Assembly: GCF_016735115.1 (NCBI RefSeq)
Contig: NZ_JAERQJ010000001.1
Span: 310,001-374,000, forward strand
Source: Aquimarina mytili
GTDB taxonomy: Bacteria > Bacteroidota > Bacteroidia > Flavobacteriales > Flavobacteriaceae
Direction: 5' to 3'
DNA length: 64,000 nt
Both the position numbers and the translations under genes were made by a program. Positions 35,338 through 52,021 of this stretch are shown one piece after another. A model generated the notes under the pieces. That model made no database searches. It worked only from the letters and a program-made list of their open reading frames with translations, and was not told the origin of the DNA. Within the stretch, counting starts at the first letter, position 1; each line of letters opens with the position of its first letter.

Positions 35338-36096
35338 TTAATTCACCACCTTTTCTTTATAATACCGATACAAATCTTCAGAAGAGGCACCCATCCATCT
35401 GCGCATATGGATATTTAAAAAATGATATTGTAGTCTCCAGACACCAATTTCTCGATATCGTCTCGCCGAAGTGATTACATACTTGGGAATAATCACAAAC
35501 TGATTAATAGCAAATAGGCGATCAACCAAATCATTGTCTTCATATACAATATAAGATTCATCATAACCATTTACTTCTTCAAATAATTGTTTAGTAATAA
35601 ACTGACTTTGATCCCCACCGCGACAGCGTTTGCTTTCAAATTGGGTTAACCATCCTAAAAAACGTAACCATATATGATTGGAATCAAACTTCATTCTAAA
35701 ACATCCTGCGTTATTTCCTTTTTTAACCTCTTCGATAACATCCTGGTCAAAATATAACGGAGGAAAAGAGTCTGCATGAAGAAAATATAGAATATCTCCT
35801 TTGGCAGTTTTGCCCCCAGCGTTTAATTGAACCGCTCTTCCTTTTTTTGAAGAAATACATTTAATCTCAACATCATAGTTTTTTGACACTTGTTCTACAA
35901 CAGCTATAGAAGTATCAATACTTCCTCCATCAACTACAATAATTTCTTGAAGATTGGCATTATCTTTTGTGTTGTTTATTAAGTGAGAAAGCAGCTGACC
36001 AATGGTAGCTGCTTCGTTAAGTATAGGTATGATAATTGATATTTTCAATTTTGGGATATTACAATTAGGCTTTAAATTTACTGATTTAAGTAGCAA
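35338..36096 (-). CDS. TIGR04283-type arsenosugar-associated glycosyltransferase
   Basis: A 252-residue GT2 transferase: ISIIIPILNEAATIGQLL, VVDGGSIDTS, AVQLNAGGKTAKGDILYFLHAD (the DxD-like HAD) and CRGGDQSQFI. The pattern matches the rSAM/selenodomain-associated transferase 2 family (TIGR04283), usually found in arsenosugar biosynthesis loci with TIGR04282 partners. In this window the TIGR04282 partner, ArsS and ArsM are 6-11 kb to the right. Here it is the last gene after DUF547 genes, 20 bases downstream of the nearest one. The sugar and acceptor are unknown. Confidence 0.78.
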   Translation of the reverse strand: MLLKSVNLKPNCNIPKLKISIIIPILNEAATIGQLLSHLINNTKDNANLQEIIVVDGGSIDTSIAVVEQVSKNYDVEIKCISSKKGRAVQLNAGGKTAKGDILYFLHADSFPPLYFDQDVIEEVKKGNNAGCFRMKFDSNHIWLRFLGWLTQFESKRCRGGDQSQFITKQLFEEVNGYDESYIVYEDNDLVDRLFAINQFVIIPKYVITSARRYREIGVWRLQYHFLNIHMRRWMGASSEDLYRYYKEKVVN

Positions 36097-36116
36097 TCGT
36101 ATCCTTTTTTTGTTCT

Positions 36117-36863
36117 TTAATCTAATACAAATGCTGGAGTAACTACAGTTTGTTCATTAAGATTCCAATCATAATCTTTATACCCTTTTTTAGGTTGATT
36201 TGTAATTTTTACTTCAGCGTATCGATTAATGAAGTCTTTTACATCACCACCATTAACTTTAAAATCTTTTTTATACCAACTAAATATTTTTGATACACTT
36301 ACTTCGGTATTTGTTATGGTGTTACGAGTAGGATCATTTATAAATTTACCCGTTTGTTGATCTAATGCAGTATGTAAATTATCTGCTGTATAGGCTCTGT
36401 TCCATACCACCGGACAAGAAATCGAAGCACAGTTAATGGCAAAATGAATTCTTGGATCTCCAAATTTTCTCAAGATCTTATGCTCTAACTCTCCTAGACT
36501 ATGCCATACTCCATCAATTTTGAAGAATTTTTTACCCCATGGATCTTCGAGATCTTTAATGCTTTTTAAAGGGTAGCTGTCTATAATAAGTTTTATCGTA
36601 TACGCATTATAGGCGTTAATCCAGTATGCTAATTTTTCTTCTCTACTCCAATTTTCTTTTGGTGGATTTTCAGAAAGTTGTCTAAAGTAGCGATACAGTT
36701 GAGAGCTATCTCTCATAAATCCATCATAGTCTACTTTTCCGTCTTCAGATACATTTAATAGTAGTGCCTGATCCCAAACACTATGGTCAAAATTATTTTG
36801 GGCTTGAAGTTGATTTAAAAATAATACGCTAAAAAGAATGAGTATAAGTCTTGGAGCTTTCAT
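36117..36863 (-). CDS. DUF547 family exported protein, copy A
   Basis: A protein of about 248 residues with a signal peptide (LILFSVLFLNQLQAQ). The core has YWINAYNAYTIKLII, DPRIHFAINCAS and CASISCPVV with both conserved cysteines, then KIFSWYKKDF. I chose the ATG at 36863 because it gives a clean signal peptide; a longer in-frame ATG at 36932 would add a polar, Asn-rich head. It is about 60% identical by eye to copy C (39064-39786). The TIGR04283 transferase gene follows after 20 bases. Confidence 0.85.
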   Translation of the reverse strand: MKAPRLILILFSVLFLNQLQAQNNFDHSVWDQALLLNVSEDGKVDYDGFMRDSSQLYRYFRQLSENPPKENWSREEKLAYWINAYNAYTIKLIIDSYPLKSIKDLEDPWGKKFFKIDGVWHSLGELEHKILRKFGDPRIHFAINCASISCPVVWNRAYTADNLHTALDQQTGKFINDPTRNTITNTEVSVSKIFSWYKKDFKVNGGDVKDFINRYAEVKITNQPKKGYKDYDWNLNEQTVVTPAFVLD

Positions 36864-37208
36864 AGTTATATTTTTTGAATGGTTATTATTTGATTTATGA
36901 TTGTATTCTAAATTTGAGTATTTAGTTGGCAATCAAGAAATGACCTTACAAGATTTAGCACATAAATTTTAGAGAAGAAGTATACCTATTCACTTAAATA
37001 GAAGTTGGTATTTTAAAATAAAACTTTGTTAAATAGCTGCAAAACAAGGAGTTGTGGTTGTTTTTAAGGTAGGCGTTAAACCGAAATTTTAATAATAAGT
37101 TGGCTGTGTATTTACAAAAAAATTAACAATCTTTAAAAGATGATTTCCCTGACTTTTTGAAGAAAAATGTCTTAGCACGTAATTTTTTGAAGCGTATTAT
37201 GCAATACA

Positions 37209-38108
37209 TTATTGGTTTAAATTCCAATCGTATGTCTTGAAATTCTTTTTAGCATTTTTGTTGATCTTAATGTTGGAATACGAGTTTAAAAAGTCAATAA
37301 GTGATCCTTCTTTTTTGAAATCTTTGGCAAACCAAGAGAATATTTTTGAGATTTCAATCTTTTCTGAGGTAATGGTGTTTCTTTTAGAATCGTTTATAAA
37401 TGCAATAGTCAGTTTTTCTAGTTCTTGGTCTACAGTATTGGCAGTAAATGCTTTATTAAGTAAAGGAGGGCAAGAAATTGAGGCGCAATTAATACCAAAA
37501 TGAATCCTTGGATCTTCCATTTTTCTTAGAATCCTGTGTTCTACATCATTTAGAGTATACCATTTTGTTCCTAGTTTGAAAAATCTCAAATCCCATGGAT
37601 CTTTAATATCTTTAATACTTTTTATAGGATAGTTGTCAATAATCAATTTTACAGTAAAGGCGTTATAAACATTCATCCAGTAAGCAAGTTTATCATTTTT
37701 GGATGCAGTTTGATCAGGCATGTTTTGTTCTAATATTTTGAGATAGGATGTAAATAATGCTCGATCTTTTTTAAAACCTGCATAGTTTACAGATCCGTCT
37801 TGAGATACGTATTTGGCTAACAAAGTATTCCAGAGTTGATGGTTTATCGTTTTTGAAACTGCTTTAGGTTTTTCTATTACCGTTTTGGGTTTTTCAATAA
37901 TAGAATCTTTCTTTTGAGAAACGATATCTTCTTTGATTTCAATTTCTGGAGCTTTTTCTTCAATTGGGATCTCAATTTTCGGAGTATCCTTTTTTGGTTC
38001 TTGGATACTATTTTTTGAAGGGGTATCAGGAGTATTTTGCACAACTTGTTTGCTTCCGCCACAGGCAAAAAATAAAAAGGCCGATAGTATGATAAGTAGG
38101 TTTTTCAT
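37209..38108 (-). CDS. DUF547 family lipoprotein, copy B
   Basis: A 299-residue lipoprotein (FLFFACGGS, Cys at residue 16). Between the lipid anchor and the DUF547 domain is a flexible Pro/Lys/Glu-rich linker of about 75 residues (such as PKKDTPKIEI), which would hold the domain off the membrane. The DUF547 core is complete: YWMNVYNAFTVKLII, HFGINCASISCPPLL and FSWFAKDF. It starts 9 bases after the hydroxylase stop, so the two are co-translated. Confidence 0.85.
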   Translation of the reverse strand: MKNLLIILSAFLFFACGGSKQVVQNTPDTPSKNSIQEPKKDTPKIEIPIEEKAPEIEIKEDIVSQKKDSIIEKPKTVIEKPKAVSKTINHQLWNTLLAKYVSQDGSVNYAGFKKDRALFTSYLKILEQNMPDQTASKNDKLAYWMNVYNAFTVKLIIDNYPIKSIKDIKDPWDLRFFKLGTKWYTLNDVEHRILRKMEDPRIHFGINCASISCPPLLNKAFTANTVDQELEKLTIAFINDSKRNTITSEKIEISKIFSWFAKDFKKEGSLIDFLNSYSNIKINKNAKKNFKTYDWNLNQ

Positions 38109-38117
38109 TCTGGATAC

Positions 38118-39005
38118 TTACTTTTTTAGTTTGATAGGGTATATTTCTTGTTGGATAAAATCTTGAGGAAAATCTTCATCGCCTTCAAACCCAAGTTCTA
38201 TATCCCGACCATCTTTTGGAATATGATTAGTTTTAAAAATATAATCCCATATACTTAACGTAAGACCAAAATTCGCGCCATATTTTTTGTGATCAGGCAA
38301 ATCCTTGGCATGATGCCAAATATGCATCTTGGGGTTGTTGAATATATACTTCAGAACTCCGTAATCCCAACCCAGATTTGCATGGTTTAAATGCCCCACA
38401 GCTAGAGCAAAGAAATGTATAATAGCCACGTCTTGCGCATCAAATCCACCAATAACTGCAATTGGGATGTACAATAGGGATTTATATACCACAGGTTCCA
38501 TCCAATGATATCGCAGATGTGCTGCAAACCCCATCTCTTTTACAGAATGATGTACTTTATGAAAATTCCACAAGAAAGGAATTCGATGCAACAACCGATG
38601 CGTGTTCCATTGTGTAAAGTCACTTACTAGAAAAAAGATAATAAGTCCCAAGGCTTTTGGTAGGGCATCTATATCAAAAACTTGAAAACTTGAGATCGAT
38701 AACCCGATAACGTTTAGAATATCATTAAAAAAAGCTGCAGCAGTATTAGATAACGCTATTAGTACGATTAGGTTAAGGAGAAAGAAATTAAAGAACATAT
38801 AAAATACATCCAGCCAGAAATCTTTCCTGAATTTTGATTGATCTTTTCTCCAGGGGAATGCAATTTCGAGCATCCACACTAAAAAAGAAACGATTATTAA
38901 ACCGTAGAAATAGTTATCCCAATTATTTTGGAATAAAATTTCGGTTTCAAGATAATTCCAATATCCCGAATACGATTTTTTTATAATTTCTATATATTTC
39001 TCCAC
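38118..39005 (-). CDS. Membrane di-iron hydroxylase (sterol desaturase/fatty acid hydroxylase family)
   Basis: A 295-residue polytopic membrane protein with the histidine clusters of the family: THRLLH (His136 and His140), HKVHH (His149, 152, 153) and HIWHH (His228, 231, 232). These bind two irons for hydroxylation or desaturation of lipids or sterol-like substrates. The start is a GTG at 39005, preceded by a strong hairpin (39015-39042) on the same strand. It sits among DUF547 genes, and I infer a lipid-modifying role there. Confidence 0.85.
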   Translation of the reverse strand: MEKYIEIIKKSYSGYWNYLETEILFQNNWDNYFYGLIIVSFLVWMLEIAFPWRKDQSKFRKDFWLDVFYMFFNFFLLNLIVLIALSNTAAAFFNDILNVIGLSISSFQVFDIDALPKALGLIIFFLVSDFTQWNTHRLLHRIPFLWNFHKVHHSVKEMGFAAHLRYHWMEPVVYKSLLYIPIAVIGGFDAQDVAIIHFFALAVGHLNHANLGWDYGVLKYIFNNPKMHIWHHAKDLPDHKKYGANFGLTLSIWDYIFKTNHIPKDGRDIELGFEGDEDFPQDFIQQEIYPIKLKK

Positions 39006-39009
39006 GTAG

Positions 39010-39042
39010 TAAAAATAACGATAAGATTGTTCTTATCGTTAT
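39010..39042 (-). terminator. Terminator or attenuator just before the hydroxylase start
   Basis: ATAACGATAAGA (39015-39026) pairs perfectly with TCTTATCGTTAT (39031-39042), a 12-bp stem with a TTGT loop. On the minus strand it is followed by TTTTT. It lies between the DUF547 copy C stop and the GTG of the hydroxylase, about 10 bases from that start. So downstream expression needs read-through, another promoter, or regulated anti-termination. Confidence 0.8.
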
Positions 39043-39063
39043 AATTTTTAAAATCTAGGTATA

Positions 39064-39786
39064 CTATTGCTCATTTAGAGACCAATCGTATTCTTTGTAT
39101 CCTTTTTTAGGTATTTTTTTGATTTTGACTTCAGAATATTGATTAATAAATGCTGCAACATCACCTTTATTAAAATCATTTTTGTACCATTCAAATATTT
39201 GTGAGACGTTAATTTTGTTTTCGGTAATTATATTTTTTGAAGGATCATTAATAAAATCTCTTGTACACTTTTCTAAGGCTTCTTCTATATTCTCGGCTGT
39301 ATAAGCCCTGTTCATAAGCTTTGGAGAAGATTTAGAGGCGCAATTAATTAAAAAATGAACTCTTGGGTCTCCCATTTTTCTCAAGATTTGATGCTCGATA
39401 TCATCAAGGCTGTACCGTTTATCTTTAATTCTAAAGAATTTTTGATTCCAGGGATCATGAAGTTCATTAATGTTTTTTACAGGATAATTATCGATAATCA
39501 TTTTTATGGCAATAGCATTATATGCGTTTGCCCAATACGCTAAGATTTCTTCTTTTGACCATTGATCAGTAGGTGGATTTTCTGATAATGATCTAAAATA
39601 TTTATAAAATAAGGAACTATCTTTCATAACTCCTTCATAATTGACTTCCCCATCATCAGAAACATTAAGTATAAGAATCTGATCCCACACAGAGTGATCT
39701 ACAATACCTTGAGCAGTACTTTTAATATAAAATAAAGTAAGTAATAGCAAGGGTAATATGAGTTTGCATTTTTTTAAAACTACCAT
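39064..39786 (-). CDS. DUF547 family exported protein, copy C, with Cys-to-Ser change
   Basis: A protein of about 240 residues with a signal peptide (LPLLLLTLFYIKSTAQ). The core is otherwise like copy A (YWANAYNAIAIKMII, HFLINCAS) but where the others read SISCP this one reads SKSSP, so Ser154 replaces the second conserved cysteine while Cys149 stays. If that cysteine is catalytic, this copy may be inactive or act as a partner. I prefer the ATG at 39786 to the one at 39798. A terminator-like hairpin follows. Confidence 0.82.
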   Translation of the reverse strand: MVVLKKCKLILPLLLLTLFYIKSTAQGIVDHSVWDQILILNVSDDGEVNYEGVMKDSSLFYKYFRSLSENPPTDQWSKEEILAYWANAYNAIAIKMIIDNYPVKNINELHDPWNQKFFRIKDKRYSLDDIEHQILRKMGDPRVHFLINCASKSSPKLMNRAYTAENIEEALEKCTRDFINDPSKNIITENKINVSQIFEWYKNDFNKGDVAAFINQYSEVKIKKIPKKGYKEYDWSLNEQ

Positions 39787-40015
39787 TTGATATCTCAATT
39801 TTGTGGTTATTCAATGATGTTAAAAGTAATAATTTTCCGGTTTTTTTACTTGTAAAACAGTTAAAACAACCGATAAAACACAAATTTTATGGTTAAACCG
39901 TAGAATTTTTAATCATAATTCATTTCTGATTATTAGGTATTTGATAGGTATAATCGCATTTTTTGATTGTGCAATATGCTAGGATTATGTATCATTGCAA
40001 TCGAACTATTTGATT

Positions 40016-41230
40016 ATGATTAGTACAGAATTAAAATTACCGTGTGGTGTTAGGTTAAAAAACAGACTGGTTAAGTCTGCTATGACAGAGCGTATTAGCA
40101 ATAAAAATTTTGAACCTACAAAAGGGCATGAGCGATTATATAAAGATTGGTCTGATACCGGAGCAGGTTTATTAATTACAGGAAATGTAGTTATAGATCA
40201 TAAGCATTTAGAATCTGCAGGCAACGTCTGTTTTGATGAAACAATGTTGCCAAAGATTAGCTCATGGGCAGAGGCTTCAAAATCAAATGGCAATCAGGTG
40301 TGGGTTCAGATTTCACATTCAGGTAGGCAAGCAAATAAGTTTAGTACGAGTCGTCCATTAGCCCCATCTGAGGTGCAATTAAAGAAAATGGGTCTTTTTG
40401 GAAAACCAAAGGCTATGACCGAAGAAGATATTCAGGAAGTGATTAAGGGTTTTGTACGTACAGCTAAACTTGCTAAAGAAGGTGGTTTTACGGGGGTGCA
40501 AATTCATGCGGCACATGGATATTTGTTAAGTCAGTTTTTATCTCCAAACACTAATTTAAGAACGGACCAATGGGGTGGAAATATAGAAAACCGTAGTCGT
40601 TTATTGCTAACAATTATTAAAGAAGTAAGAAAAGAAGTTGGGCCAGAGTTTCCTATTGCAGTAAAGTTAAATTCTGCCGATTTTCAACGAGGCGGATTTA
40701 CAGAAGAAGAATCATTGGAGGTTGTAAAGATGTTGGATAAAGAAAGTATAGACTTGCTGGAAATTTCAGGAGGAACATATGAAAAACTGGCTTTCTTTAT
40801 TATGAATGAGGAAGGAGCAGAGATAAAAGAAAGCACCAAAAGAAGAGAGGCTTATTTCATTGATTTTGCAAAGAAAATAAGAACAATAAGTAAGATGCCT
40901 TTAATGATAACAGGTGGTTTCAGGTCTTATGATTTTTGTAATGAAGTTTTAGAGAACGGCGAGGTAGATCTTATAGGAATGGGGCGCCCTTTTATAACGA
41001 ACAAAGATGATATTTCCGCATTTTTGAAAGGTGAAGTTCCAAATTTGGAGAACCTTGTATTACGAACCGGAATAAAGCAATTTGAAGATTCTGCTGAAGG
41101 AGGTTTTTACGCTAGACAATTAATTCGTTTTTCTAAAGGAAAGAAACTAAAAGTTAATATGAGTCCATTATGGTGTTCAATGTTTTTAGTGATCTATGAA
41201 TTTAGAAAGGCAATGGCCAAGAAATTTTAG
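40016..41230 (+). CDS. Old Yellow Enzyme family NADH:flavin oxidoreductase
   Basis: A protein of about 404 residues with the FMN-binding TIM-barrel of Old Yellow Enzyme relatives: RLKNRLVKSAMTER near the start, QISHSGRQ, GFTGVQIHAAHGYLLSQF with the conserved His pair, SPNTNLRTDQWGG, and LMITGGFRS followed by DLIGMGRPF. The C-terminal extension lacks the iron-sulfur motif of 2,4-dienoyl-CoA reductases. These enzymes reduce activated alkenes. It is read away from the DUF547 block, 229 bases from copy C, and its substrate is unknown. Confidence 0.85.
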   Translation: MISTELKLPCGVRLKNRLVKSAMTERISNKNFEPTKGHERLYKDWSDTGAGLLITGNVVIDHKHLESAGNVCFDETMLPKISSWAEASKSNGNQVWVQISHSGRQANKFSTSRPLAPSEVQLKKMGLFGKPKAMTEEDIQEVIKGFVRTAKLAKEGGFTGVQIHAAHGYLLSQFLSPNTNLRTDQWGGNIENRSRLLLTIIKEVRKEVGPEFPIAVKLNSADFQRGGFTEEESLEVVKMLDKESIDLLEISGGTYEKLAFFIMNEEGAEIKESTKRREAYFIDFAKKIRTISKMPLMITGGFRSYDFCNEVLENGEVDLIGMGRPFITNKDDISAFLKGEVPNLENLVLRTGIKQFEDSAEGGFYARQLIRFSKGKKLKVNMSPLWCSMFLVIYEFRKAMAKKF

Positions 41231-41362: not shown

Positions 41363-42478
41363 CTATGCTATATTTTTAAGTAATAGAAATAATAGCATGC
41401 TAATAATAGCCGCAATAGGCAATGTAAGTACCCAGGACAATAATATCTTAGAAATCATTTTAGGGTTTGCTTTTTTAGTAACGGTTCCAATTCCAAAAAT
41501 AGAACCTACGGATACATGTGTGGTTGAAACTGGTAAACCGTGAATACTTGCCGTGGTCACTAATAAACCTGTGATCATGTTTGCTGTAAATCCTTGTCCA
41601 GAGTTCATAGGAGTTATTTTCTTACTGATTATAACCCCTACTTTTTTGGCATTCATAAGTCCTCCTAATGCCATAGTAATGGCAACGGCGATCATTCCCC
41701 ATTGTATATCCAGTGTATTAATGATTAGTAATAACCCTACAATTTTTGGTGTATCATTAAGGCCTCTGGCAAAACTAACTATCCCAGCACTTAGAAAATG
41801 TAAGTTGTCTAATATTTTCTGAGAAGAAATGCCAAATAGTTTTCCACCATATGTTTCAACTATAGCAGGTTTTATTGATGTGGATACCTTGGTCGTGGTA
41901 TTTGCAGTCATTGTATGTGCAGAAACAGTTAACGAATCTACCTTCTGTTCTTCTTTAATATAAATACCGCTATTTTTAGTGATCTTCAGTTTTTTCCTGA
42001 TATATCTAAATATTATATAGGCTATTAAACTTAGTACGGCAGCCATTAACGGACTTACAATAAGCGGTATTAAAAATGTTTTACCAAGTTTTATGAAGTT
42101 AAATTCGGTACCAATAGCCATAACTCCTGCTCCAAAAAGTGAACCAACCAAACTATGGGTTGTAGATATTGGCATACCAACTCTTGTTGCAATAAAGACC
42201 GTTATTGCAGCTCCCAGAGCAATCGAGATGGCAAAAACCGGCATTGCAATTAACTCGTTTGGGACTAATCCTTTTCCTGAGAAATTTTTAACCAACTCTT
42301 CGGCTAAAAAGATAGCAGCAATAGAACCAGAAAATGTTGTTATGGTTGCCCAGTGTATTGCTTTTTTATAATCGGTGGTACCACTTCCGAAAAGAGTAGC
42401 GACACCTTTAAAATTATCATTCGCGCCATTACTATAGGCCAAAAAACAAGCAGCAATAAAAAGAAGAACCAAAATCAT
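41363..42478 (-). CDS. PiT-type inorganic phosphate transporter
   Basis: A protein of about 371 residues with ten or more membrane spans. Both PiT signature repeats are seen: ACFLAYSNGANDNFKGVATL at the start and SFARGLNDTPKI in the middle, with GMPISTTHSLVGS and GLPVSTTHVSVGS. PiT carriers import phosphate and also arsenate, so the position next to arsenosugar genes is suggestive. I chose the ATG at 42478 because an earlier in-frame ATG at 42688 would cross a terminator and overlap the methyltransferase gene. Confidence 0.85.
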   Translation of the reverse strand: MILVLLFIAACFLAYSNGANDNFKGVATLFGSGTTDYKKAIHWATITTFSGSIAAIFLAEELVKNFSGKGLVPNELIAMPVFAISIALGAAITVFIATRVGMPISTTHSLVGSLFGAGVMAIGTEFNFIKLGKTFLIPLIVSPLMAAVLSLIAYIIFRYIRKKLKITKNSGIYIKEEQKVDSLTVSAHTMTANTTTKVSTSIKPAIVETYGGKLFGISSQKILDNLHFLSAGIVSFARGLNDTPKIVGLLLIINTLDIQWGMIAVAITMALGGLMNAKKVGVIISKKITPMNSGQGFTANMITGLLVTTASIHGLPVSTTHVSVGSIFGIGTVTKKANPKMISKILLSWVLTLPIAAIISMLLFLLLKNIA

Positions 42479-42560: not shown

Positions 42561-42598
42561 AGTAAAAAAGTCGAAAACAAAATACTGTTTTCGACTTT
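42561..42598 (-). terminator. Strong terminator after the arsenosugar operon
   Basis: AAAGTCGAAAACA (42567-42579) pairs with TGTTTTCGACTTT (42586-42598), a 13-bp perfect stem with an AAATAC loop. On the minus strand the hairpin is followed by TTTTTT. It lies 35 bases beyond the methyltransferase stop and separates it from the phosphate transporter gene. Confidence 0.9.
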
Positions 42599-42632: not shown

Positions 42633-43601
42633 TTAACAACAGCCTCCACCATCATAATGATAGGTCGATTCGCTAATAAATATATCATCCCTTCCTAAAT
42701 CAGCTAATGCACCGGCAGTTTTATCACAAACTGCAATAGGTTGATTTTTCAGTAAAACATGCCCTTTTTTATCATCAAAATAATCTTCGTCACCAAAATA
42801 AATAGCCGCTTTACCAGTAAAAATACATGGACCATCTTTTGGCATAGGGTCTTTAATAGCTGCAACTTCGATAGATTCAATATAGATTAACTCATCGGTA
42901 TCATAATTCTTTGGATCAAGAATTCGGTATGGTTTGCGCGCTCTAATTTCAATAGTACCAAAACCGACATCGGTTAATGCTTTTACATATTCTGCAATAG
43001 GTAAACTACCACTAAGACATAAAGCTCTTAAACGTTCATCATTTCGCAGATTGTCATTCATTGGCTGCTCACATGTTGGATCACTCATTACTAATCTACC
43101 ATGTGGTTTTAGCACTCGGTACATTTCTTCAATCGCTTTTCTTAAATCATCAGCTTTAAAAATATTGAAAAGGCAGTTTTGAGCGGCGACATCTATACTA
43201 TTGTCGTCAACAGGAAGATGTAATGCATCTCCATATCGTAAATCAACAAAATCACTCTTAAACCAATCATTTTGAGCCTCTGCTTCTTTAAAATTTTTAC
43301 GAGAGGCATCCAACATTTCTTGTACCACATCAATACCAATAACACCATTTTTTTGGCGAGAGAAATAAGAGAATTGCAATAATTCCATTCCTCCACCAAC
43401 GCCAACGTACAAAATTTTAGGATTATTCGTTAAATCTCTGGCATTTACCGTGCTACCACATCCATAGTTCATTTCCTGCATAATTTTAGGAATTTTGAGA
43501 CCTGGTAGTTCCCATATTGGATTCGTAGTACAGCATAAACCTACATCTGGAGTTAATGCTGCTTCTTTATACACATCGTGAGTAGTATCTAAATAGCTCA
43601 T
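42633..43601 (-). CDS. arsM: ArsM-type arsenite methyltransferase of arsenosugar pathway
   Basis: A 322-residue SAM-dependent methyltransferase. The SAM site is ILYVGVGGGMELLQF near residue 63. Cysteines typical of arsenic methylases are present as C23-C24, C48, C143 (AAQNCLFN) and C195 (ALCLSG). The extended C-terminus ends in GGGCC. Proteins of this form with ArsS neighbours are annotated as arsenosugar biosynthesis arsenite methyltransferase, making methylated arsenicals such as dimethylarsinous acid. Last gene of the operon, with a strong terminator after it. Confidence 0.85.
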   Translation of the reverse strand: MSYLDTTHDVYKEAALTPDVGLCCTTNPIWELPGLKIPKIMQEMNYGCGSTVNARDLTNNPKILYVGVGGGMELLQFSYFSRQKNGVIGIDVVQEMLDASRKNFKEAEAQNDWFKSDFVDLRYGDALHLPVDDNSIDVAAQNCLFNIFKADDLRKAIEEMYRVLKPHGRLVMSDPTCEQPMNDNLRNDERLRALCLSGSLPIAEYVKALTDVGFGTIEIRARKPYRILDPKNYDTDELIYIESIEVAAIKDPMPKDGPCIFTGKAAIYFGDEDYFDDKKGHVLLKNQPIAVCDKTAGALADLGRDDIFISESTYHYDGGGCC

Positions 43602-43700
43602 AAATTGATTTTAATCTTTCCTTTAAAGTGGAAATATAAGGTATTATTGGGTTATAAATAGTATAGTCGAGAAGTAAAGGGATACCTTTCAAAATTTGTT

Positions 43701-44513
43701 TTAAAGGAATTGTATAACTTCTTTGAATAGCGTAATCATATCGGGCTCAGCTTTTCCGGCCAGAGCAATAATCTCGTCTATGTCTATTGGTTTTAAGTTG
43801 TCAGGATCACATTCGTCTGTAAGAACGGATACTGCCGCTACCGGAAGATCAAGATGGTTGGCTACAATAACTTCGGGTACTGTGCTCATCCCAACGGCAT
43901 CTGCACCAATAGTTTTGAGATAACGATATTCTGCTCTGGTTTCTAATTGAGGTCCTAATACCGAGGCATAGACCCCTTTGTGCAGATTAATACTTTTTTC
44001 TTTAGCTATAGTTTCAAGTTTTTCATTAATACTTTGATCATAAGGAGCACTCATATCTGTAAAACGAGTACCTAATTGCTCTACACCTTTAAAAGCTAAC
44101 GGAGAACCTCCTTGAAGATTAATATGATCATCGATAAGCATTAGTTCGCCCTTTTTGAAGTTTAAATTTACTGCTCCTGATGCATTAGAAACCAATAATG
44201 TTTTGATTCCGAGTTTATGCATGATTCGCACGGGATAGGTAACATCTTGTAGAGAGTATCCTTCATATAGATGAAAACGTCCTTGCATCACTACAACAGT
44301 TTTGCCTTCAAGTTTTCCGTAAATTAGTTTTCCTTTATGAAACTCCACAGTTGCTGTCGGAAAATTAGGGATATGATTATAACTTATTTCTTTGATGATC
44401 TCAATTTCGCTAATTAATTGCCCTAATCCGGTACCAAGTATAATTCCTATTTCTGGATTTTCAAATCCTTTTTCCTGAAGGAATTCTGTTGTTTCTTCAA
44501 TGTATTTGATCAT
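43701..44513 (-). CDS. Purine nucleoside phosphorylase
   Basis: A 270-residue PNP of the trimeric family: GIILGTGLGQL, HKGKLIYGKLEGK, YPVRIMHKLG, VSNASGAVNLNFKKGELM and VGMSTVPEVIVA are all typical. It phosphorolyses purine nucleosides to base and ribose-1-phosphate. Its place between the TIGR04282 transferase (8 bases) and ArsM suggests a pathway role, perhaps removing adenine from the adenosylated dimethylarsenical made by ArsS. That role is my inference. Confidence 0.88.
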   Translation of the reverse strand: MIKYIEETTEFLQEKGFENPEIGIILGTGLGQLISEIEIIKEISYNHIPNFPTATVEFHKGKLIYGKLEGKTVVVMQGRFHLYEGYSLQDVTYPVRIMHKLGIKTLLVSNASGAVNLNFKKGELMLIDDHINLQGGSPLAFKGVEQLGTRFTDMSAPYDQSINEKLETIAKEKSINLHKGVYASVLGPQLETRAEYRYLKTIGADAVGMSTVPEVIVANHLDLPVAAVSVLTDECDPDNLKPIDIDEIIALAGKAEPDMITLFKEVIQFL

Positions 44514-44521
44514 GTTGTTTG

Positions 44522-45127
44522 TTATCTTAAAAATTTTTGAAAAGCATCGATGTCTTTGATGTCTTCATAATAATCAACATCATTGCGCTCTTCTAATAGT
44601 TTAACATTGTTGTTTTGCAAATCTTTTAATGTATCCTGAAGCACTGTTTCTGTACCCCAGTTTTTACGCTTAAAAACTTGTGAATTTAAGGATTTCATTC
44701 CAAATAAGTAATATCCTCCATCTTCAGCCGGACCTATCACATAGTCTTGAGATTCTAAAGCGGTAAAAGCATGTTCTATATCTTTTTGTTCCAAATCATA
44801 CATATCACTACCAATAATAATAATATTTTGATATCCTTTAGAAAATCCCTCTGTAAATGCATGTTCCATACGCAAACCTAAATCATCTCCATATTGCTGT
44901 TTTTTATCATATAGATTGGGATCCCATATATCATTTTCTCTTACTTTGATAGAGTAATGAACCTCTTTAGATACAGTAAGATTTTTGGTAATTGCCACTG
45001 TATGATCTAATAAGAACTTATAAATATCTAATGCAGCCTGATCTCCAATTGAGGCAGCAAGGCGTGTTTTGCATTTACCCAATTCTGGATTTCGGGTAAA
45101 TATCATGAGTAATTTTCTTTGCTTCAA
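44522..45127 (-). CDS. TIGR04282-type arsenosugar-associated glycosyltransferase
   Basis: A protein of about 201 residues with the pattern of the rSAM/selenodomain-associated transferase 1 family: LMIFTRNPELGKCKTRLAA (nucleotide binding), IIIGSDMYDL and AEDGGYYLFGM. I place the start at a TTG at 45127, because TTGA overlaps the stop of the rhodanese gene exactly as ATGA pairs do, and the resulting MKQRKLLMIFTRN head fits the family. An ATG at 45169 would give a longer overlap of 46 bases. Substrate unknown. Confidence 0.8.
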   Translation of the reverse strand: MKQRKLLMIFTRNPELGKCKTRLAASIGDQAALDIYKFLLDHTVAITKNLTVSKEVHYSIKVRENDIWDPNLYDKKQQYGDDLGLRMEHAFTEGFSKGYQNIIIIGSDMYDLEQKDIEHAFTALESQDYVIGPAEDGGYYLFGMKSLNSQVFKRKNWGTETVLQDTLKDLQNNNVKLLEERNDVDYYEDIKDIDAFQKFLR

Positions 45128-45621
45128 TTTGAATATACTTTTTTTCCCTTTTGTAACCATTTTGCCCATTGCTTAGAGCATGCATGAACATTTTCGGTGA
45201 TTTCTCCTTTCGAATTTACAACAGTATAGTTTTTATTTTTCCATTCAAAAATACCGCCATAAAGATTATAAACATTTATGTAACCTGCCTTTTTAAGTTT
45301 TTCAGAAATATCTTCAGATCGAACACCTAGGCTGCAGTAAACTACAATGGTATCACTTTTTGGAATATTATGTTTGTTGATAGATTTTATTTTAAAATGA
45401 GTATAGCCTACAAATTTTGCATTTTTGATGTGACTTACTTCATATTCGTTTTTTTCTCTGGCGTCAAGAAGAACAACATTATTTTCTACGTTTTTCAATT
45501 CATCAACATATATATAAGGAATACTCTCATTATTATATTGTTTCAATACTTCATCAAGTGAGTTTTGTGCAATACTATAATGAGCAACGAGTAGAAATAT
45601 GTATACTATTTTGAATTTCAT
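45124..45621 (-). CDS. Exported rhodanese-like protein
   Basis: A 165-residue protein with a signal peptide (IFLLVAHYSIAQN). The rhodanese domain has VVLLDAREKNEYEVSHI and the active loop YCSLGVRS with Cys96 and Arg101. Rhodaneses move sulfur or act as thiol-dependent reductases, and in arsenic loci relatives can reduce arsenate. It directly follows arsS and overlaps the transferase gene, so it is part of the operon. Its role in this pathway is not established. Confidence 0.83.
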   Translation of the reverse strand: MKFKIVYIFLLVAHYSIAQNSLDEVLKQYNNESIPYIYVDELKNVENNVVLLDAREKNEYEVSHIKNAKFVGYTHFKIKSINKHNIPKSDTIVVYCSLGVRSEDISEKLKKAGYINVYNLYGGIFEWKNKNYTVVNSKGEITENVHACSKQWAKWLQKGKKVYSN

Positions 45622-46689
45622 TTATGCCACGGTTCCCTGACAGCTGCTTCCTGCACCGGCAGTACAGCCATAGCAATGCTGTGAGATCACTATATTTCTA
45701 TTTTGAAGTAATTCTTCGTTATATTCGCTTATATGTTTCACTTTGCTGGCTACTTTAAGACCGAGCATCTGATTAAAATCACAATCATATAACCATCCAT
45801 CCCAACTTACAGAAATAGTATTGGTGCACATAACATTGGCAACCGCAGAAGGATTATAAGCATCTACTAAGGCGTACATGTAATCTTCGTAATTATCTGA
45901 AGCTATTAAATAATCTAAAAATCTACTTATAGGTAAATTTGTGATTGCAAAAAGGTTATGAAACTGAATATTGAAATCTTCGAGTAATGCCTTTTTAAAA
46001 TCTTTTTCCATGGCAGCTTGATCTCCAGGTAAAAAGGCTCCGGATGGATTATATACCAAATCTAAGCTAAGATCACTATCAGGCATACCATATCCTCTTG
46101 CATTAAGTTCTTGTAAAGCTTTGATTGATTTGTCAAAAACACCATCACCACGTTGTTTATCTGTTTTTCCACGGGTCCAGTGTGGCATAGAGGATACTAC
46201 ATGTACATTATGTTTTTTGAAAAAATCCGGAAGATCATAATACTTTTTATTTGCCCTGATAATTGTAAGATTACTTCTAACAATAAAATCTTTGATTCCG
46301 GCTTTGCTTGCTTCTTCTACAAACCATCTAAAATTTGGATTCATCTCTGGGGCACCTCCTGTTAAGTCTAAAGTATGTGCTCCTGTTTTTTTAATAACTT
46401 CAAGACACTGTTGCATGGTCTCTTTCGTCATAATTTCTTTGCGATCAGGTCCGGCATCAACATGACAATGTTCGCATACCTGATTACACATATAGCCCAC
46501 ATTAATTTGAAGAATTTCGAGTTTATTTGGGCGCAATGGCGAGTGACCAATTTCGGCTATTTTATCTGCAAATTTTGGTAATTCACCATTTGCAAAAATT
46601 CCATTATTTAAAATCTCCAACTGCCTATTAGCATCTGCTAATTGGTTATTGCGTTTATGAAGAGATTGTTTTGTTTTAGCTTCAGACAT
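45622..46689 (-). CDS. arsS: ArsS radical SAM enzyme of arsenosugar biosynthesis
   Basis: A 355-residue radical SAM protein. The [4Fe-4S] cluster motif CNQVCEHC gives Cys68, Cys72 and Cys75. A Cys-rich C-terminal end (HCYGCTAGAGSSCQG, Cys339, 342 and 350) matches the radical SAM/Cys-rich family named ArsS. In cyanobacteria the ArsM/ArsS pair links dimethylarsenic to 5'-deoxyadenosine, the first committed step to arsenosugars. Its neighbours here are the rhodanese (no gap) and an AhpD-like protein (104 bases before). Confidence 0.88.
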   Translation of the reverse strand: MSEAKTKQSLHKRNNQLADANRQLEILNNGIFANGELPKFADKIAEIGHSPLRPNKLEILQINVGYMCNQVCEHCHVDAGPDRKEIMTKETMQQCLEVIKKTGAHTLDLTGGAPEMNPNFRWFVEEASKAGIKDFIVRSNLTIIRANKKYYDLPDFFKKHNVHVVSSMPHWTRGKTDKQRGDGVFDKSIKALQELNARGYGMPDSDLSLDLVYNPSGAFLPGDQAAMEKDFKKALLEDFNIQFHNLFAITNLPISRFLDYLIASDNYEDYMYALVDAYNPSAVANVMCTNTISVSWDGWLYDCDFNQMLGLKVASKVKHISEYNEELLQNRNIVISQHCYGCTAGAGSSCQGTVA

Positions 46690-46793
46690 CTTCTGTTCTT
46701 AGATTATTTTATGTTTTGGAATATAGTCAAAACGAATTATTTGTCTTTATTAACAAACAATAAGGAGCTTTAGCAAATGACTAAAGAGTTTCC

Positions 46794-47129
46794 TTACATT
46801 TCCAATTTATTCACCTTATTCATCATCATAACTCCGTGCACTAATGTAGCGCCACTTTTGATTGCAGCTCCTACATGAACAGCTTCCATCATTTCTTCTT
46901 TGGTTACTCCTCTTTGTAAAGAGTCTTTTGTATAGGCATCTATACAATAAGGACATTGTTCGGTATGTGCAACCGCCAAAGCAATTAAAGATTTTTCACG
47001 GGCGGTTAATGCACCTTCTTCAAATACTTTTCCATAATAATCAAAGAATTTTGTGCCTAATTCTTCACTCCATTCGGTGATTTTTCCAAATTTTCTTAGA
47101 TCGGCAGGGTCATAATATGTTTTTGACAT
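46794..47129 (-). CDS. AhpD-like, arsenosugar biosynthesis-associated protein
   Basis: A 111-residue carboxymuconolactone decarboxylase/AhpD-fold protein with the redox pair CPYC (Cys59 and Cys62) and the ITEWSEELGTKFFDYYGKV start typical of the arsenosugar-associated branch. It may reduce disulfides or arsenical intermediates. It is the first gene of the operon. A short imperfect hairpin (46762-46795) follows its stop and may reduce or process transcription into arsS. Confidence 0.8.
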   Translation of the reverse strand: MSKTYYDPADLRKFGKITEWSEELGTKFFDYYGKVFEEGALTAREKSLIALAVAHTEQCPYCIDAYTKDSLQRGVTKEEMMEAVHVGAAIKSGATLVHGVMMMNKVNKLEM

Positions 47130-47362: not shown

Positions 47363-49717
47363 ATGAAAACTCAGAAAAATTTTCAGCAAAAACGACGTTT
47401 TGGTAAAAATTCGATAATACAAACGCTTGCATTTTTTTGGATTGCATTTTTATTTAATTCGGGGAATTTGTTTCCTCAGAATTCAGTAACTTCTAGTATA
47501 TCAGGAACTATAAAGAGTGATATGATAGAAAAAAAAATAGATTCTCTCTTGTCTTTGATGACACTTAAAGAGAAAATAGGGCAGCTTGTTTTGTATAGCG
47601 GAAGTTGGGATGTTACGGGGCCGCCATCTGATGTAGGAAATAAAGAAAAATATGAGAAACTTAAAAATGGCGAAGTAGGAGCGATGCTTAATGTAGTGTC
47701 TGTAGCCGGAACTACAGAGTTGCAAAAGACAGTAATTGAGAATTCTCGTTTAAAAATCCCACTGCTTTTTGGTTATGATGTCATTCATGGTTTTAAAACA
47801 ATTTTTCCTGTGCCTTTGGCAGAAAGTGCAAGTTGGGATCTTGAGGCAATAAGAAAATCATCTTCTATTGCAGCTAAAGAAGCTACGGCTTCAGGGATTA
47901 ATTGGGCTTATGGTCCAATGGTTGATATTTCAAGAGATGCACGATGGGGTAGAGTTATGGAAGGTGCAGGAGAAGATCCCTTTTTAGGATCAAAAATAGC
48001 AGTAGCAAGGATTCAGGGATTTCAAGGAGACGATCTTTCTAAAAATTCTACCTTAGCCGCATGTGCAAAGCATTTTGCAGCATACGGATTTGCAGAAGGT
48101 GGAAGAGATTATAATACAGTTAGTGTAGGTGAGTTTGAACTTCATAACACGATTTTGCCACCATTTAAAGCAGCAGCAAAAGCTGGAGTTGCAACAATGA
48201 TGAATGCTTTTAATGAAATTGATGGGATACCCGCTACTGGCCATAAAGAACTGCAAAGAGACATTTTAAAAGAATCTTGGGATTGGGATGGGTTTATCGT
48301 TTCAGACTGGGCATCAATTGCAGAAATGATACCTCATGGATATGCAAAAGATGAAGTTCATGCCGCCGAACGTGCAATACTAGCTGGTAGTGATATGGAT
48401 ATGGAAGGGAGGGCATACGAAAAAGGATTAGAACAGTTGGTTAAAGAAGGGAAAGTTGATGAGAAATTAATAGAAGATGCCGCTAGACGTATTCTAAGAG
48501 TAAAGTATCAATTAGGACTATTTGATGATCCTTATAAGTATTGTGATAAAGAACGCGAAAAAAATGATATTTATACCAAAGAGAATTTAGAGGCTTCTAG
48601 AGATGTAGCCAAGAAATCTATTGTGTTGCTTAAGAATGATAATGAGATACTACCTCTTAAAAAAGATATAAAGAGTATTGCTGTTATAGGGGCTTTGGCA
48701 AATGATAAAGATTCTCCTATTGGTAGCTGGAGAGGTATGGCTACGGCAAACTCTGCCGTTTCACTTCTAGAAGGCATTAAGGCAGCTGTAAGTAAAACGG
48801 TAAAGGTTTCATATGCCAAAGGAGTTAAGATTGGAGTAGGGGAACGAAGTTTTATTAAAGAATTAGACGTAAATCGAGAGGATTTAACAGGGATTTCTGA
48901 AGCGGTAAGTATTGCAAAAGAAGCCGAAGTGGTTGTTTTGGCAATAGGAGAAGAAGCTTTTCAATCAGGAGAAGGCAGAAGCCAGGTAAGCATAACACTT
49001 ACTGCGCCTCAACAAAAACTTTTTGAAGCGGTTTGGGCCGCAAATAAAAATATTGTTGCCGTTTTAATGAATGGCCGTCCTTTGGCAATAAGTAATATAG
49101 CAAAAAAAACCCCAGCTATACTTGAAACTTGGCATTTGGGATCAGAATCGGGCAATGCAATTGCTGATGTGTTGTTTGGAGACTATAACCCTTCTGGTAA
49201 ACTACCGGTTTCATTCCCACGCAATGTTGGCCAAATGCCTCTTTATTACAATATTAAAAATACCGGAAGACCTACTAATAAAAATGACATGGTATTTTGG
49301 TCACATTATACTGATGAGCAAAATGAAGCTCTATTCCCATTTGGGTTTGGGTTGAGTTATACTACTTTCGAGTACAAAAACTTAGAATTAGATGTTTCTT
49401 CTTTTACATCAGGTGGTGCAATTACAGTTTCGGTCACATTAGCCAATACAGGAAAAAGAAAGGGTAAAGAGGTTGTGCAGTTATATATTAGGGATATTAT
49501 TGGTAGTATAACCCGTCCTGTAAAAGAGTTAAAAGGTTTTGAGCTTGTAGAACTTGACGCAGGTAAAAGTAAAACAGTGTCGTTTACAATTAATGAAGAA
49601 ACAATTCAGTTTTATACGGCTAATAAAAAGTGGGAAGCCGAACCAGGACAATTTAAAGTCTTTGTGGGGGGGAGTTCCAAAACTACGCTAGAAGCTGATT
49701 TTTCTTTTAAAAAATAA
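47363..49717 (+). CDS. GH3 beta-glucosidase, exported
   Basis: A 784-residue GH3 enzyme of BglX type. The signal segment (LAFFWIAFLFNSGNLF) lies at residues 22-37. The catalytic barrel has YGPMVDISRDARWGR, KHFAAYG and the nucleophile Asp315 (GFIVSDWAS). The C-terminal half has the second GH3 domain (VLAIGEEAFQSGEG) and a fibronectin-III-like end. It removes terminal beta-linked glucose (or xylose) in the periplasm. An operator-like site lies inside its first 25 codons. LacI and GH13/SusCD genes follow. Confidence 0.92.
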   Translation: MKTQKNFQQKRRFGKNSIIQTLAFFWIAFLFNSGNLFPQNSVTSSISGTIKSDMIEKKIDSLLSLMTLKEKIGQLVLYSGSWDVTGPPSDVGNKEKYEKLKNGEVGAMLNVVSVAGTTELQKTVIENSRLKIPLLFGYDVIHGFKTIFPVPLAESASWDLEAIRKSSSIAAKEATASGINWAYGPMVDISRDARWGRVMEGAGEDPFLGSKIAVARIQGFQGDDLSKNSTLAACAKHFAAYGFAEGGRDYNTVSVGEFELHNTILPPFKAAAKAGVATMMNAFNEIDGIPATGHKELQRDILKESWDWDGFIVSDWASIAEMIPHGYAKDEVHAAERAILAGSDMDMEGRAYEKGLEQLVKEGKVDEKLIEDAARRILRVKYQLGLFDDPYKYCDKEREKNDIYTKENLEASRDVAKKSIVLLKNDNEILPLKKDIKSIAVIGALANDKDSPIGSWRGMATANSAVSLLEGIKAAVSKTVKVSYAKGVKIGVGERSFIKELDVNREDLTGISEAVSIAKEAEVVVLAIGEEAFQSGEGRSQVSITLTAPQQKLFEAVWAANKNIVAVLMNGRPLAISNIAKKTPAILETWHLGSESGNAIADVLFGDYNPSGKLPVSFPRNVGQMPLYYNIKNTGRPTNKNDMVFWSHYTDEQNEALFPFGFGLSYTTFEYKNLELDVSSFTSGGAITVSVTLANTGKRKGKEVVQLYIRDIIGSITRPVKELKGFELVELDAGKSKTVSFTINEETIQFYTANKKWEAEPGQFKVFVGGSSKTTLEADFSFKK
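47414..47434. promoter_or_regulatory. Operator-like site inside the GH3 gene
   Basis: The 21 bases here match the site at 52016-52036 at all but one position (CAAACGCTTG versus CAAACGTTTG in the core, with flanking AATA and CATTT the same). It lies about 50 bases after the GH3 ATG, in codons 18-24. It may act as a roadblock operator, or the true transcription start may be different. Confidence 0.45.
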
Positions 49718-49885
49718 ACCTCCTTATATAGGCGATTGCATCTCAATACATGTTGTTTGTCGTTATAAGTATACAAAGTGTAGTCTTAATCGGTCATAGA
49801 TTCAGAAAAAAGCTTACTTTAGACTCCAAAGAAGTTTTATCAATATTCTTTTAGTCTTAAATATGAAAATGCCAAAATTGAGGTT

Positions 49886-50923
49886 ATGAGGAAAAAAGTT
49901 ACCCTTAAACAGCTTGCAAAAGAATTGAATTTATCAATCTCTACCGTTTCAAAATCATTAAAAAATGATCCGGAAATTAGTGATAAAACCATTAATAGGG
50001 TTCATGAATTGGCTAATTTTTATAATTACAAACCTAATGCATTAGCTGTAAGCTTAAAGAGCAATAAGACTAAAACTATTGGGATTATTTTGCCAGAAAT
50101 TCTTAATCATTTCTTTGCTAAGGCTTTGTTTGGTATAGAAAAGGAAGCCTCAAAGAGCGGGTACAAAATTGTTACGTGTATTACCAACGAGTCTTATCAG
50201 AAAGAAGTAGAATATGTAGAAATGCTAAATTATAGTAGTGTTGATGGTTTTATAGTAGCGTTAAGTCAGGAAACTCAAGTGCTTAATAAATTTGATCATT
50301 ATCAGGTTTTAAAAAGAGATAATGTACCAGTTGTAATGTTTGATCGTGTTAGTGATGAAATTGATTGTGATAAGGTAATTGTAGATGATAAAGTTGCTTC
50401 AAAAAATGCTATTCAGTATCTTATTGATACAGGATGCAAAAAGATTGCAGTGATAACAACAATAAGCGACTTAAGTGTTGCTAAATTGCGTTTAGAAGGT
50501 GCTAGAGAAGTTGTTAATGAAAATGACCAGGTTTCCTTAATAGAATTAGCTGTGAAGGATACTATAATAGAATTGTCTGTAGATGATGCTAATAATGTTG
50601 AAAAAGAAATAGAAGAGTTTTTAAAGAATAATGATATAGATGCAGTTCTTGGTTTGGATGAAACCGCCGCAGCCATTACTATAAATATGTCTCATAAGTT
50701 GGGGTATAAAATTCCGAAGGATATCTCGGTAATTGGATTTACAGATGGTTTATTATCAAAACATTCGTATCCAAAATTAACAACAGTGTCACAACATGCC
50801 GAAGAATTAGGAGCTAAAGCTGCTCAAATTTTATTAAATCAATTGGATCATTTTGTTGAAAACTATAAAACAAAAACAGAAGTGGTTAAGACATCTTTAA
50901 TCCAAAGAGATTCAACCAATTAA
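49886..50923 (+). CDS. LacI family transcriptional regulator 1
   Basis: A 345-residue LacI-type protein: an N-terminal helix-turn-helix (TLKQLAKELNLSISTVSKSL) and the hinge region, then a periplasmic-binding-protein-like sensor domain (IGIILPEILNHFFAKALFGI, VPVVMFDRVSDEI). It lies 169 bases after GH3 on the same strand and runs tail to tail with the second LacI gene, 10 bases apart. It probably controls local glycan genes, effector unknown. Confidence 0.88.
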   Translation: MRKKVTLKQLAKELNLSISTVSKSLKNDPEISDKTINRVHELANFYNYKPNALAVSLKSNKTKTIGIILPEILNHFFAKALFGIEKEASKSGYKIVTCITNESYQKEVEYVEMLNYSSVDGFIVALSQETQVLNKFDHYQVLKRDNVPVVMFDRVSDEIDCDKVIVDDKVASKNAIQYLIDTGCKKIAVITTISDLSVAKLRLEGAREVVNENDQVSLIELAVKDTIIELSVDDANNVEKEIEEFLKNNDIDAVLGLDETAAAITINMSHKLGYKIPKDISVIGFTDGLLSKHSYPKLTTVSQHAEELGAKAAQILLNQLDHFVENYKTKTEVVKTSLIQRDSTN

Positions 50924-50933
50924 ATGTATGCAA

Positions 50934-51962: not shown

Positions 51963-52021
51963 TTACAATTACGTTAAAAAATTATTATTAAAACATCATT
52001 TTTGTTAAAAATATAATAATA

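What the first reader, a model, noticed from the sequence alone, without database searches (positions are those of the whole stretch)
42633..47129. A compact arsenosugar biosynthesis operon with a built-in purine nucleoside phosphorylase
Six minus-strand genes in a row encode an AhpD-like protein, ArsS (radical SAM, CNQVCEHC), a rhodanese, a TIGR04282 transferase, a PNP and an ArsM-type methylase, ended by a 13-bp-stem terminator. ArsM and ArsS are known to make the adenosyl-dimethylarsenical precursor of arsenosugars. Removal of adenine from it is an undefined step. The PNP, embedded between two pathway genes, is a natural candidate for it, giving a 5-dimethylarsinoyl ribose-1-phosphate that a transferase could use. 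No ArsR or arsenic efflux pump is visible, so this is biosynthetic rather than classic resistance.
Basis: partly seen in the sequence, partly recalled or inferred. Interest (0 to 1): 0.85.

Follow-up and report, generated by a model that had tools for sequence, protein, structure and literature searches.

The report
Arsenosugar operon with embedded nucleoside phosphorylase
A probably marine bacterium's gene cluster for making arsenic-containing sugars carries its own nucleoside-splitting enzyme, from a branch that mostly travels with these genes and has an altered active site, so it may well do the unassigned step of cutting adenine off the arsenic compound; no experiment has tested this.

Summary
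In detail: minus-strand genes at 42633-47129 encode TIGR04169, ArsS, a rhodanese, TIGR04282, a purine nucleoside phosphorylase (PNP) and arsenosugar-type ArsM, then a strong terminator. The cluster is longer than reported: TIGR04283, a second transferase that NCBI assigns to this pathway, lies at 35338-36096. NCBI gives the PNP no such name. The genome also has DeoD. The PNP is in the operon in 20 of 20 fetched same-genus loci. In other genera of the family, 17 of 17 sampled arsS+ genomes carry this PNP type, against 1 of 23 without arsS. In a tree, ars-linked PNPs form one group (100/98, with two unlinked rows), apart from PNPs beside lpxK. The 5'-OH-binding His257 is Ile/Val/Leu in 97 of 97 ars-linked rows, as in MTAP; His in 20 of 20 of the lpxK group. 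Limits: PNPs without ars neighbours often share that pocket; 0 of 63 arsS loci fetched outside the family have a PNP nearby; two genomes carry the PNP module without ArsS or ArsM. Most likely role: phosphorolysis of 5'-dimethylarsino-adenosine. No activity was shown.

The parts
46794..47129 (-). AhpD-like protein, TIGR04169 arsenosugar biosynthesis-associated peroxidase-like
   Evidence: 193 bits, cut-off 120
45622..46689 (-). ArsS, radical SAM, TIGR04167 (C-x3-C-x2-C present)
   Evidence: 441 bits, cut-off 300; sequence
45124..45621 (-). Rhodanese-domain protein, NF045521 'rhoda_near_glyco'; N-terminus looks like a signal peptide (by eye)
   Evidence: 207 bits, cut-off 145
44522..45169 (-). 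TIGR04282 transferase (DUF2064, CofC-like); ORF start overlaps the rhodanese, true start may be internal
   Evidence: 218 bits, cut-off 134; CofC TIGR03552 E 1.5e-6, below its cut-off; only PDB match at E<=1 is 3cgx
43701..44513 (-). Trimeric-type purine nucleoside phosphorylase of the ars-linked group; Asp at human N243, Ile at human H257, Leu at human F200, Glu at human E201
42633..43601 (-). Arsenosugar-type ArsM methyltransferase, NF038099
   Evidence: 578 bits, cut-off 400
42567..42598 (-). Rho-independent terminator, 14-pair stem, 4-nt loop, T-rich tail
41363..42478 (-). Pit/PHO4-family phosphate (possibly arsenate) transporter just past the terminator; start at 42478 is my reading, the mechanical ORF extends to 42688
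   Evidence: PF01384 217 bits; PHO4 also beside ArsM in some relatives
39064..39798 (-). DUF547 protein, recurrent neighbour of the cluster
   Evidence: DUF547 in 35 of 80 named arsS loci
38118..39005 (-). FA_hydroxylase (OlsE-like, below that model's cut-off), recurrent neighbour
   Evidence: in 19 of 80 named loci
37209..38108 (-). DUF547 protein
36117..36932 (-). DUF547 protein
35338..36096 (-). TIGR04283 family GT2 arsenosugar biosynthesis glycosyltransferase
   Evidence: 227.5 bits, cut-off 182; similar proteins in 24 of 80 named loci

Best explanation
The PNP is a pathway-dedicated phosphorylase for 5'-modified adenosines. ArsM methylates arsenite and ArsS adds the 5'-deoxyadenosyl group to arsenic (known from the literature; that the acceptor is dimethylarsinous acid is recalled). 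The PNP then cleaves the N-glycosidic bond with phosphate, giving adenine and 5-deoxy-5-dimethylarsinoyl-alpha-D-ribose 1-phosphate. TIGR04282, a CofC-like relative, may turn this into a nucleotide-activated arsenoribose, and TIGR04283, a GT2-family and so presumably inverting transferase, may move it to a glycerol-type acceptor. Two inversions, at the PNP and at the GT2 step, would return the beta-riboside found in natural arsenosugars. Shown here: gene content, linkage, separate grouping in a tree, active-site substitutions. Inferred: every reaction after ArsS.
For: Linkage: PNP in the operon in 20 of 20 same-genus loci fetched (of 32 same-genus genomes besides the own, all with arsS). Of 17 arsS+ genomes of other genera in the family, 11 have it within 8 kb of arsS, 2 just beyond (about 8.2 kb) beside TIGR04282 and ArsM, and 4 in a separate rhodanese-TIGR04282-PNP operon, 3 of those 4 with ArsM. 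In 80 named arsS loci, 50 hold a PNP. TIGR04282 lies just upstream in 68 of 81 PNP-bearing loci. Co-occurrence in the family: this PNP type in 17 of 17 arsS+ and 1 of 23 arsS- genomes; inside one genus 3 of 3 against 0 of 20 (Fisher 2e-10 and 6e-4, not corrected for relatedness). Tree: 46 ars-linked rows plus 2 others form one side at 100/98, 16 lpxK-linked rows another at 100/98. Active site: human H257 is I/V/L in 97 of 97 ars-linked rows (89 distinct) and H in 20 of 20 rows of the lpxK group; human MTAP has V there. N243 is D as in MTAP. Literature passages: PNP's 5'-OH is hydrogen-bonded to His257 (PMC12648331); N243D calf and human PNP gain activity on adenosine (PMC6274182); a hydrophobic ribose site explains MTAP's acceptance of 5'-substituted nucleosides (PMC5147791). 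Catalytic motifs are kept.
Against: No activity data. The hydrophobic residue at 257 is not specific: 47 of 50 'other' Bacteroidota PNPs, with no ars gene found within 1.5 kb, have it too, including 24 of 27 rows from arsS- genomes. Asp243 is shared by the lpxK-linked group. TIGR01700, a model named for inosine/guanosine specificity, is just passed (296.1 against 293.35). 0 of 63 arsS loci fetched outside the family carry a PNP within 8 kb (5 of the 63 are under 16 kb). 30 of 80 named loci show no PNP (some are cut by contig ends). G424 has ArsS but no such PNP, only two MTA/SAH nucleosidases and an AMP nucleosidase. G235 and G099 have the rhodanese-TIGR04282-PNP-DUF547 module (TIGR04283-like too in G235) with no ArsS above cut-off and no ArsM; both are counted among the 97 ars-linked rows. 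G357 has ArsS and the PNP but no ArsM. Two of the ars-side rows in the tree (G199, G103) have no ArsS, ArsM, TIGR04282 or rhodanese neighbour in 16 kb.
Confidence: 0.6

Rival explanations
1. The PNP clears 5'-deoxyadenosine or methylthioadenosine, including 5'-dAdo released by uncoupled ArsS turnover, and is linked to arsS only as a by-product remover.
For: Asp243 plus a hydrophobic 257 fits any 5'-modified adenosine; similar PNPs occur in arsS- genomes (24 of 27 rows). The genome shows no separate MTAP or MTAN (3 PF01048 proteins). MtnP cleaves 5'-dAdo in Synechococcus elongatus (passages, PMC8102628).
Against: In the family the type is almost absent without arsS (1 of 23), although those genomes should also run radical SAM enzymes (not counted); it is coupled to TIGR04282 (68 of 81).
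Confidence: 0.2
2. The rhodanese-TIGR04282-PNP-DUF547-TIGR04283 module makes an arsenic-free riboside or lipid from a 5'-modified adenosine and only sometimes takes the arsenical.
For: G235 and G099 carry the module (TIGR04283-like only in G235) without ArsS above cut-off or ArsM; the module lies away from arsS in G044, G187, G287 and G357.
Against: NCBIfam assigns TIGR04282 and TIGR04283 to arsenosugar biosynthesis; the PNP module without arsS is rare in the family (1 of 23).
Confidence: 0.1
3. It is an ordinary purine-salvage PNP that happens to sit in the operon.
For: General PNP models are passed; catalytic motifs and Glu201 are kept.
Against: Separate group in the tree, no His257, DeoD in the same genome, and an lpxK-linked PNP coexisting in 3 of 3 arsS+ genomes of genus g21.
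Confidence: 0.07
4. The PNP helps reduce arsenate to arsenite by arsenolysis (ribose-1-arsenate route), feeding ArsM.
For: Mammalian PNP reduces arsenate in vitro (passage, PMC12608789).
Against: It does not explain the altered 5' site or the tie to TIGR04282.
Confidence: 0.03

Closest known systems
Arsenosugar biosynthesis genes ArsM (NF038099), ArsS (TIGR04167), TIGR04169, TIGR04282, TIGR04283
   Same: All five are present above curated cut-offs in this window.
   Different: None of the NCBIfam models that the PNP matched names this pathway; here the PNP is embedded between TIGR04282 and ArsM.
Trimeric purine nucleoside phosphorylase (human PNP type, NF006054)
   Same: Family score, phosphate-site motif, Glu201, Met219, Ser220.
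   Different: N243 to D, H257 to I, F200 to L; separate group from lpxK-linked PNPs.
5'-Methylthioadenosine phosphorylase (MTAP)
   Same: Asp at the 243 position and a hydrophobic residue at the 257 position.
   Different: Below the MTAP model cut-off (100 against 275); keeps Glu where MTAP has Ser.
Solved PNPs 4lna and 4m1e (Spirosoma linguale and Planctopirus limnophila; organism names recalled)
   Same: First and fourth of the solved matches (E 5.7e-90 and 1.7e-76); also a TD-x-C motif and Leu at the 257 position (read by eye from the alignment).
   Different: Their ars context was not examined.

Membership tests
Arsenosugar biosynthesis cluster | Arsenosugar-type ArsM (NF038099) | tested here: met
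   578 bits, cut-off 400
Arsenosugar biosynthesis cluster | ArsS (TIGR04167) with radical SAM motif | tested here: met
   441 bits, cut-off 300; CNQVCEHC
Arsenosugar biosynthesis cluster | TIGR04282 and TIGR04283 glycosyltransferase-like proteins | tested here: met
   218/134 and 227.5/182 bits
Arsenosugar biosynthesis cluster | Strain makes arsenosugars | not testable with these tools
   needs HPLC-ICP-MS
Trimeric PNP, 6-oxopurine nucleoside specific | Family score | tested here: met
   NF006054 341/218; TIGR01700 296.1/293.35
Trimeric PNP, 6-oxopurine nucleoside specific | Asn243 (base recognition) | tested here: not met
   Asp in the window PNP; also Asp in the lpxK and other groups, so not peculiar to the ars group
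Trimeric PNP, 6-oxopurine nucleoside specific | His257 (5'-OH binding) | tested here: not met
   Ile in the window PNP; I/V/L in 97 of 97 ars-linked rows
MTAP | TIGR01694 cut-off | tested here: not met
   100.1 against 274.85
MTAP | Hydrophobic 5' site and Asp in base site | tested here: met
   Ile at 257, Asp at 243 positions; only these two positions were compared for this
Phosphorylase of the ArsS product | Activity on 5'-deoxy-5'-dimethylarsinoyl-adenosine | not testable with these tools
   enzyme assay needed
TIGR04282 as nucleotidyltransferase | CofC-like sequence and fold | tested here: inconclusive
   weak CofC match E 1.5e-6; invariant G-x2-K-x-R-L in 25 sequences; no structure result

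The most novel reading that the evidence does not exclude
A branch of PNPs in Flavobacteriaceae and a few relatives is a dedicated arsenonucleoside phosphorylase. It releases adenine from the ArsS product and makes an arsenoribose 1-phosphate, which TIGR04282 activates with a nucleotide and TIGR04283 transfers with inversion. Arsenosugars would then be made through a nucleotide-activated arsenoribose, not by hydrolysis with a nucleosidase.
Probability: 0.42. Interest if true: 0.8.

Novelty: new variant of a known kind. Interest (0 to 1): 0.6.

Why it matters
Arsenosugars are major organic arsenic compounds in seaweed and marine algae. My searches turned up no assigned enzyme for the step after ArsS; one review proposes an 'adenosyl nucleosidase' for a related algal arsenolipid (passage, PMC10456119). 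A specific gene with a predicted substrate and product makes the step directly testable, and points to Flavobacteriaceae as possible arsenosugar makers beside algae and cyanobacteria.

Tried and rejected
Search with TIGR04345 was a wrong accession (ovoA C-terminus); ignored. 'Only housekeeping PNP' was rejected. 'PNP and arsS linked throughout the phylum' was rejected by 0 of 63 loci. Asp243 as a signature of the ars group was rejected: the lpxK and other groups have it too. His257 loss as unique to the ars group was rejected: 47 of 50 'other' rows also lack His. Another PF01048-type enzyme beside arsS outside the family: queries with MTAN, AMP nucleosidase, uridine phosphorylase, DeoD and both PNP types found none in the 63 loci at E<=1e-3; nucleosidases of other folds were not sought. 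The paper searches named under Why it matters cover one open-licence library; I saw their listings and, for nine papers, passages. Cheng 2021 is known here only as cited in PMC12159101; Xue 2019 only from memory; neither appeared in the listings.

How rows were chosen and dropped: 'ars-linked' means that a relative of ArsS, ArsM, TIGR04282, rhodanese or AhpD was found in the fetched stretch, so G235 and G099 are inside it. L228 (truncated PNP) and L296 (broken PNP frame) were left out of residue counts and tree. L312 and L313 (lpxK-linked but outside the lpxK group; V and L at 257) and L309, L311, L315 (outside the 'other' group; all hydrophobic at 257) were left out of the group counts. The 97 ars-linked rows hold 8 duplicates (89 distinct). 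The 84 tree rows were thinned by similarity plus a hand-kept list. Of 156 arsS-bearing genomes, loci of 78 were fetched (17 in the family, 61 outside, one of these with two loci), plus G044, giving 80 loci; outside the family the choice was by hand for spread. Of 32 same-genus genomes 20 were fetched. One search covered a hand-picked 78 genomes.
Full report
OBSERVATION. Five pass specific NCBIfam models: TIGR04169, TIGR04167 (ArsS), NF045521 (rhodanese), TIGR04282 and NF038099 (arsenosugar ArsM); the sixth passes general PNP models. The genes are closely spaced and end in a 14-pair hairpin with a T-rich tail at 42567-42598. Downstream, on the same strand, lie a PHO4/Pit transporter, three DUF547 proteins, a fatty-acid-hydroxylase-family protein and, at 35338-36096, a TIGR04283 arsenosugar glycosyltransferase above cut-off. 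One gene on the plus strand (39995-41230, old-yellow-enzyme-like) interrupts them. So the window probably holds a cluster of about 12 kb.

ONLY COPY? The genome has three PF01048 proteins: this PNP, a DeoD-type PNP (next to what looks by eye like a deoC gene) and a uridine-phosphorylase-like protein below that model's cut-off.

CONSERVATION WITH arsS. All 33 genomes of the genus searched (own included) have ArsS above cut-off. The genus is probably Aquimarina: one same-genus contig matches in length a record titled Aquimarina sp.; this is an inference. Of 32 same-genus genomes 20 loci were fetched, and 20 of 20 have the PNP in the operon. In a sample of 395 genomes of the phylum, 156 have ArsS. 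In the window's family that sample has, besides the own genome, 17 arsS+ and 23 arsS- genomes. All 17 carry a PNP of the ars type: 11 within 8 kb of arsS, 2 just beyond at about 8.2 kb beside TIGR04282 and ArsM, and 4 (G183, G187, G287, G357) in a separate rhodanese-TIGR04282-PNP operon, with ArsM in G183, G187 and G287 but not G357. Among the 23 without arsS only G235 has it; 11 have an lpxK-linked PNP and 11 no match. In genus g21, 3 of 3 arsS+ genomes have the ars-type PNP as a second PNP and 0 of 20 arsS- genomes have it. Fisher tests (2e-10; 6e-4) ignore relatedness. Of 80 named ArsS loci from many genera, 50 hold a PNP, 69 a TIGR04282-like protein (some of these only the distant paralogue), 43 the rhodanese, 41 ArsM, 35 DUF547, 24 a TIGR04283-like protein, 19 the fatty-acid hydroxylase and 7 Pit; some of these loci are cut by contig ends. 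Against this, 0 of 63 loci fetched outside the family have a PNP within 8 kb, although a few named loci outside the family do (Fulvivirga, a Bacteroidia MAG).

PHYLOGENY. An 84-row tree (IQ-TREE, LG+C20+F+G4) puts 46 ars-linked PNPs plus two others on one side of a 100/98 branch, 16 lpxK-linked PNPs on one side of a 100/98 branch, and 17 other Bacteroidota PNPs on one side of a 100/100 branch. The two extra rows (G199, G103) have no ars genes within 16 kb. Two lpxK-linked rows and one other row fall outside their groups.

ACTIVE SITE. Using human numbering, the 5'-OH-binding His257 is Ile, Val or Leu in 97 of 97 ars-linked rows, His in 20 of 20 rows of the lpxK group, and hydrophobic in 47 of 50 other rows. 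Split by genome, those other rows are hydrophobic in 23 of 23 from arsS+ and 24 of 27 from arsS- genomes. Human MTAP has Val at this position. Asn243 is Asp in all three groups, as in MTAP. Glu201, Met219, Ser220 and the phosphate-site GRFH are kept (GRFH in 96 of 97 ars-linked rows). From passages read: the 5'-OH is bonded to His257 in PNP (PMC12648331), N243D PNP gains adenosine activity (PMC6274182), and a hydrophobic ribose pocket without hydrogen-bond partners explains MTAP's use of 5'-substituted nucleosides (PMC5147791). The PNP therefore looks built for an adenine nucleoside without a normal 5'-OH. The ArsS product is one, but so are 5'-dAdo and MTA, and PNPs of arsS- genomes share the pocket. 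The pocket supports 'acts on a 5'-modified adenosine'; only the gene linkage points to arsenic.

MECHANISM. ArsS adenosylates arsenic (cited in PMC12159101, passages). Natural arsenosugars are 5-dimethylarsinoyl-beta-D-ribofuranosides (PMC10456119, passages). PNP chemistry gives an alpha ribose 1-phosphate (established for the family). TIGR04282 matches the CofC guanylyltransferase model weakly, its one solved relative found is called a putative nucleotide-diphospho-sugar transferase, and 25 aligned members share an invariant G-x2-K-x-R-L. GT2 enzymes invert (established, recalled). A PNP, nucleotidyltransferase, inverting GT2 chain would yield the beta-riboside. This chain is inference; the structure job that might have tested TIGR04282 could not be used.

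COUNTER-CASES. G235 and G099 have the rhodanese-TIGR04282-PNP-DUF547 module but no ArsS above cut-off and no ArsM; G357 has ArsS and PNP but no ArsM. G424 has ArsS and no such PNP but two MTA/SAH nucleosidases, so if depurination occurs there another enzyme must do it. In the 63 loci outside the family no PF01048-type protein was found beside arsS. These keep the rivals alive.

VERDICT. A real, conserved and partly known cluster; the PNP is an unassigned and well-supported candidate for the depurination step. I give 0.6 that it does this reaction and 0.42 for the full activated-arsenoribose route.

Noticed in passing
window 35338-39798: TIGR04283 transferase, three DUF547 proteins and an OlsE-like fatty-acid hydroxylase; DUF547 is in 35, the hydroxylase in 19 of 80 named arsS loci, hinting at an arsenolipid or membrane step.
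   Followed up: partly
window 11847-20191: Group with two GT2 transferases, a membrane protein with weak mannosyltransferase matches, a NapH-like ferredoxin protein, a CoA-disulfide-reductase-like flavoprotein and a DUF547 protein; proteins that look similar by eye to the flavoprotein and to one GT2 recur near arsS in phylum loci (L144, L155-L157; L144, L145, L162, L164-L166).
   Followed up: no
window 41363-42478: Pit/PHO4 transporter directly after the ArsM terminator; the same pair occurs in some relatives and may import arsenate.
   Followed up: partly
L340 (G235) and L345 (G099): Rhodanese-TIGR04282-PNP-DUF547 module in genomes without ArsS above cut-off or ArsM.
   Followed up: partly
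L181-L184, L186, L187, L189, L195: A second, distant TIGR04282-like (DUF2064-like) paralogue sits between ArsS and the rhodanese in these same-genus loci but not in the window.
   Followed up: no
window 47363-53966: GH3-like glycosidase, two LacI-type regulators and an alpha-amylase-family-like protein upstream of the operon; looks like an unrelated sugar-use locus (read by eye from sequence, no family search).
   Followed up: no
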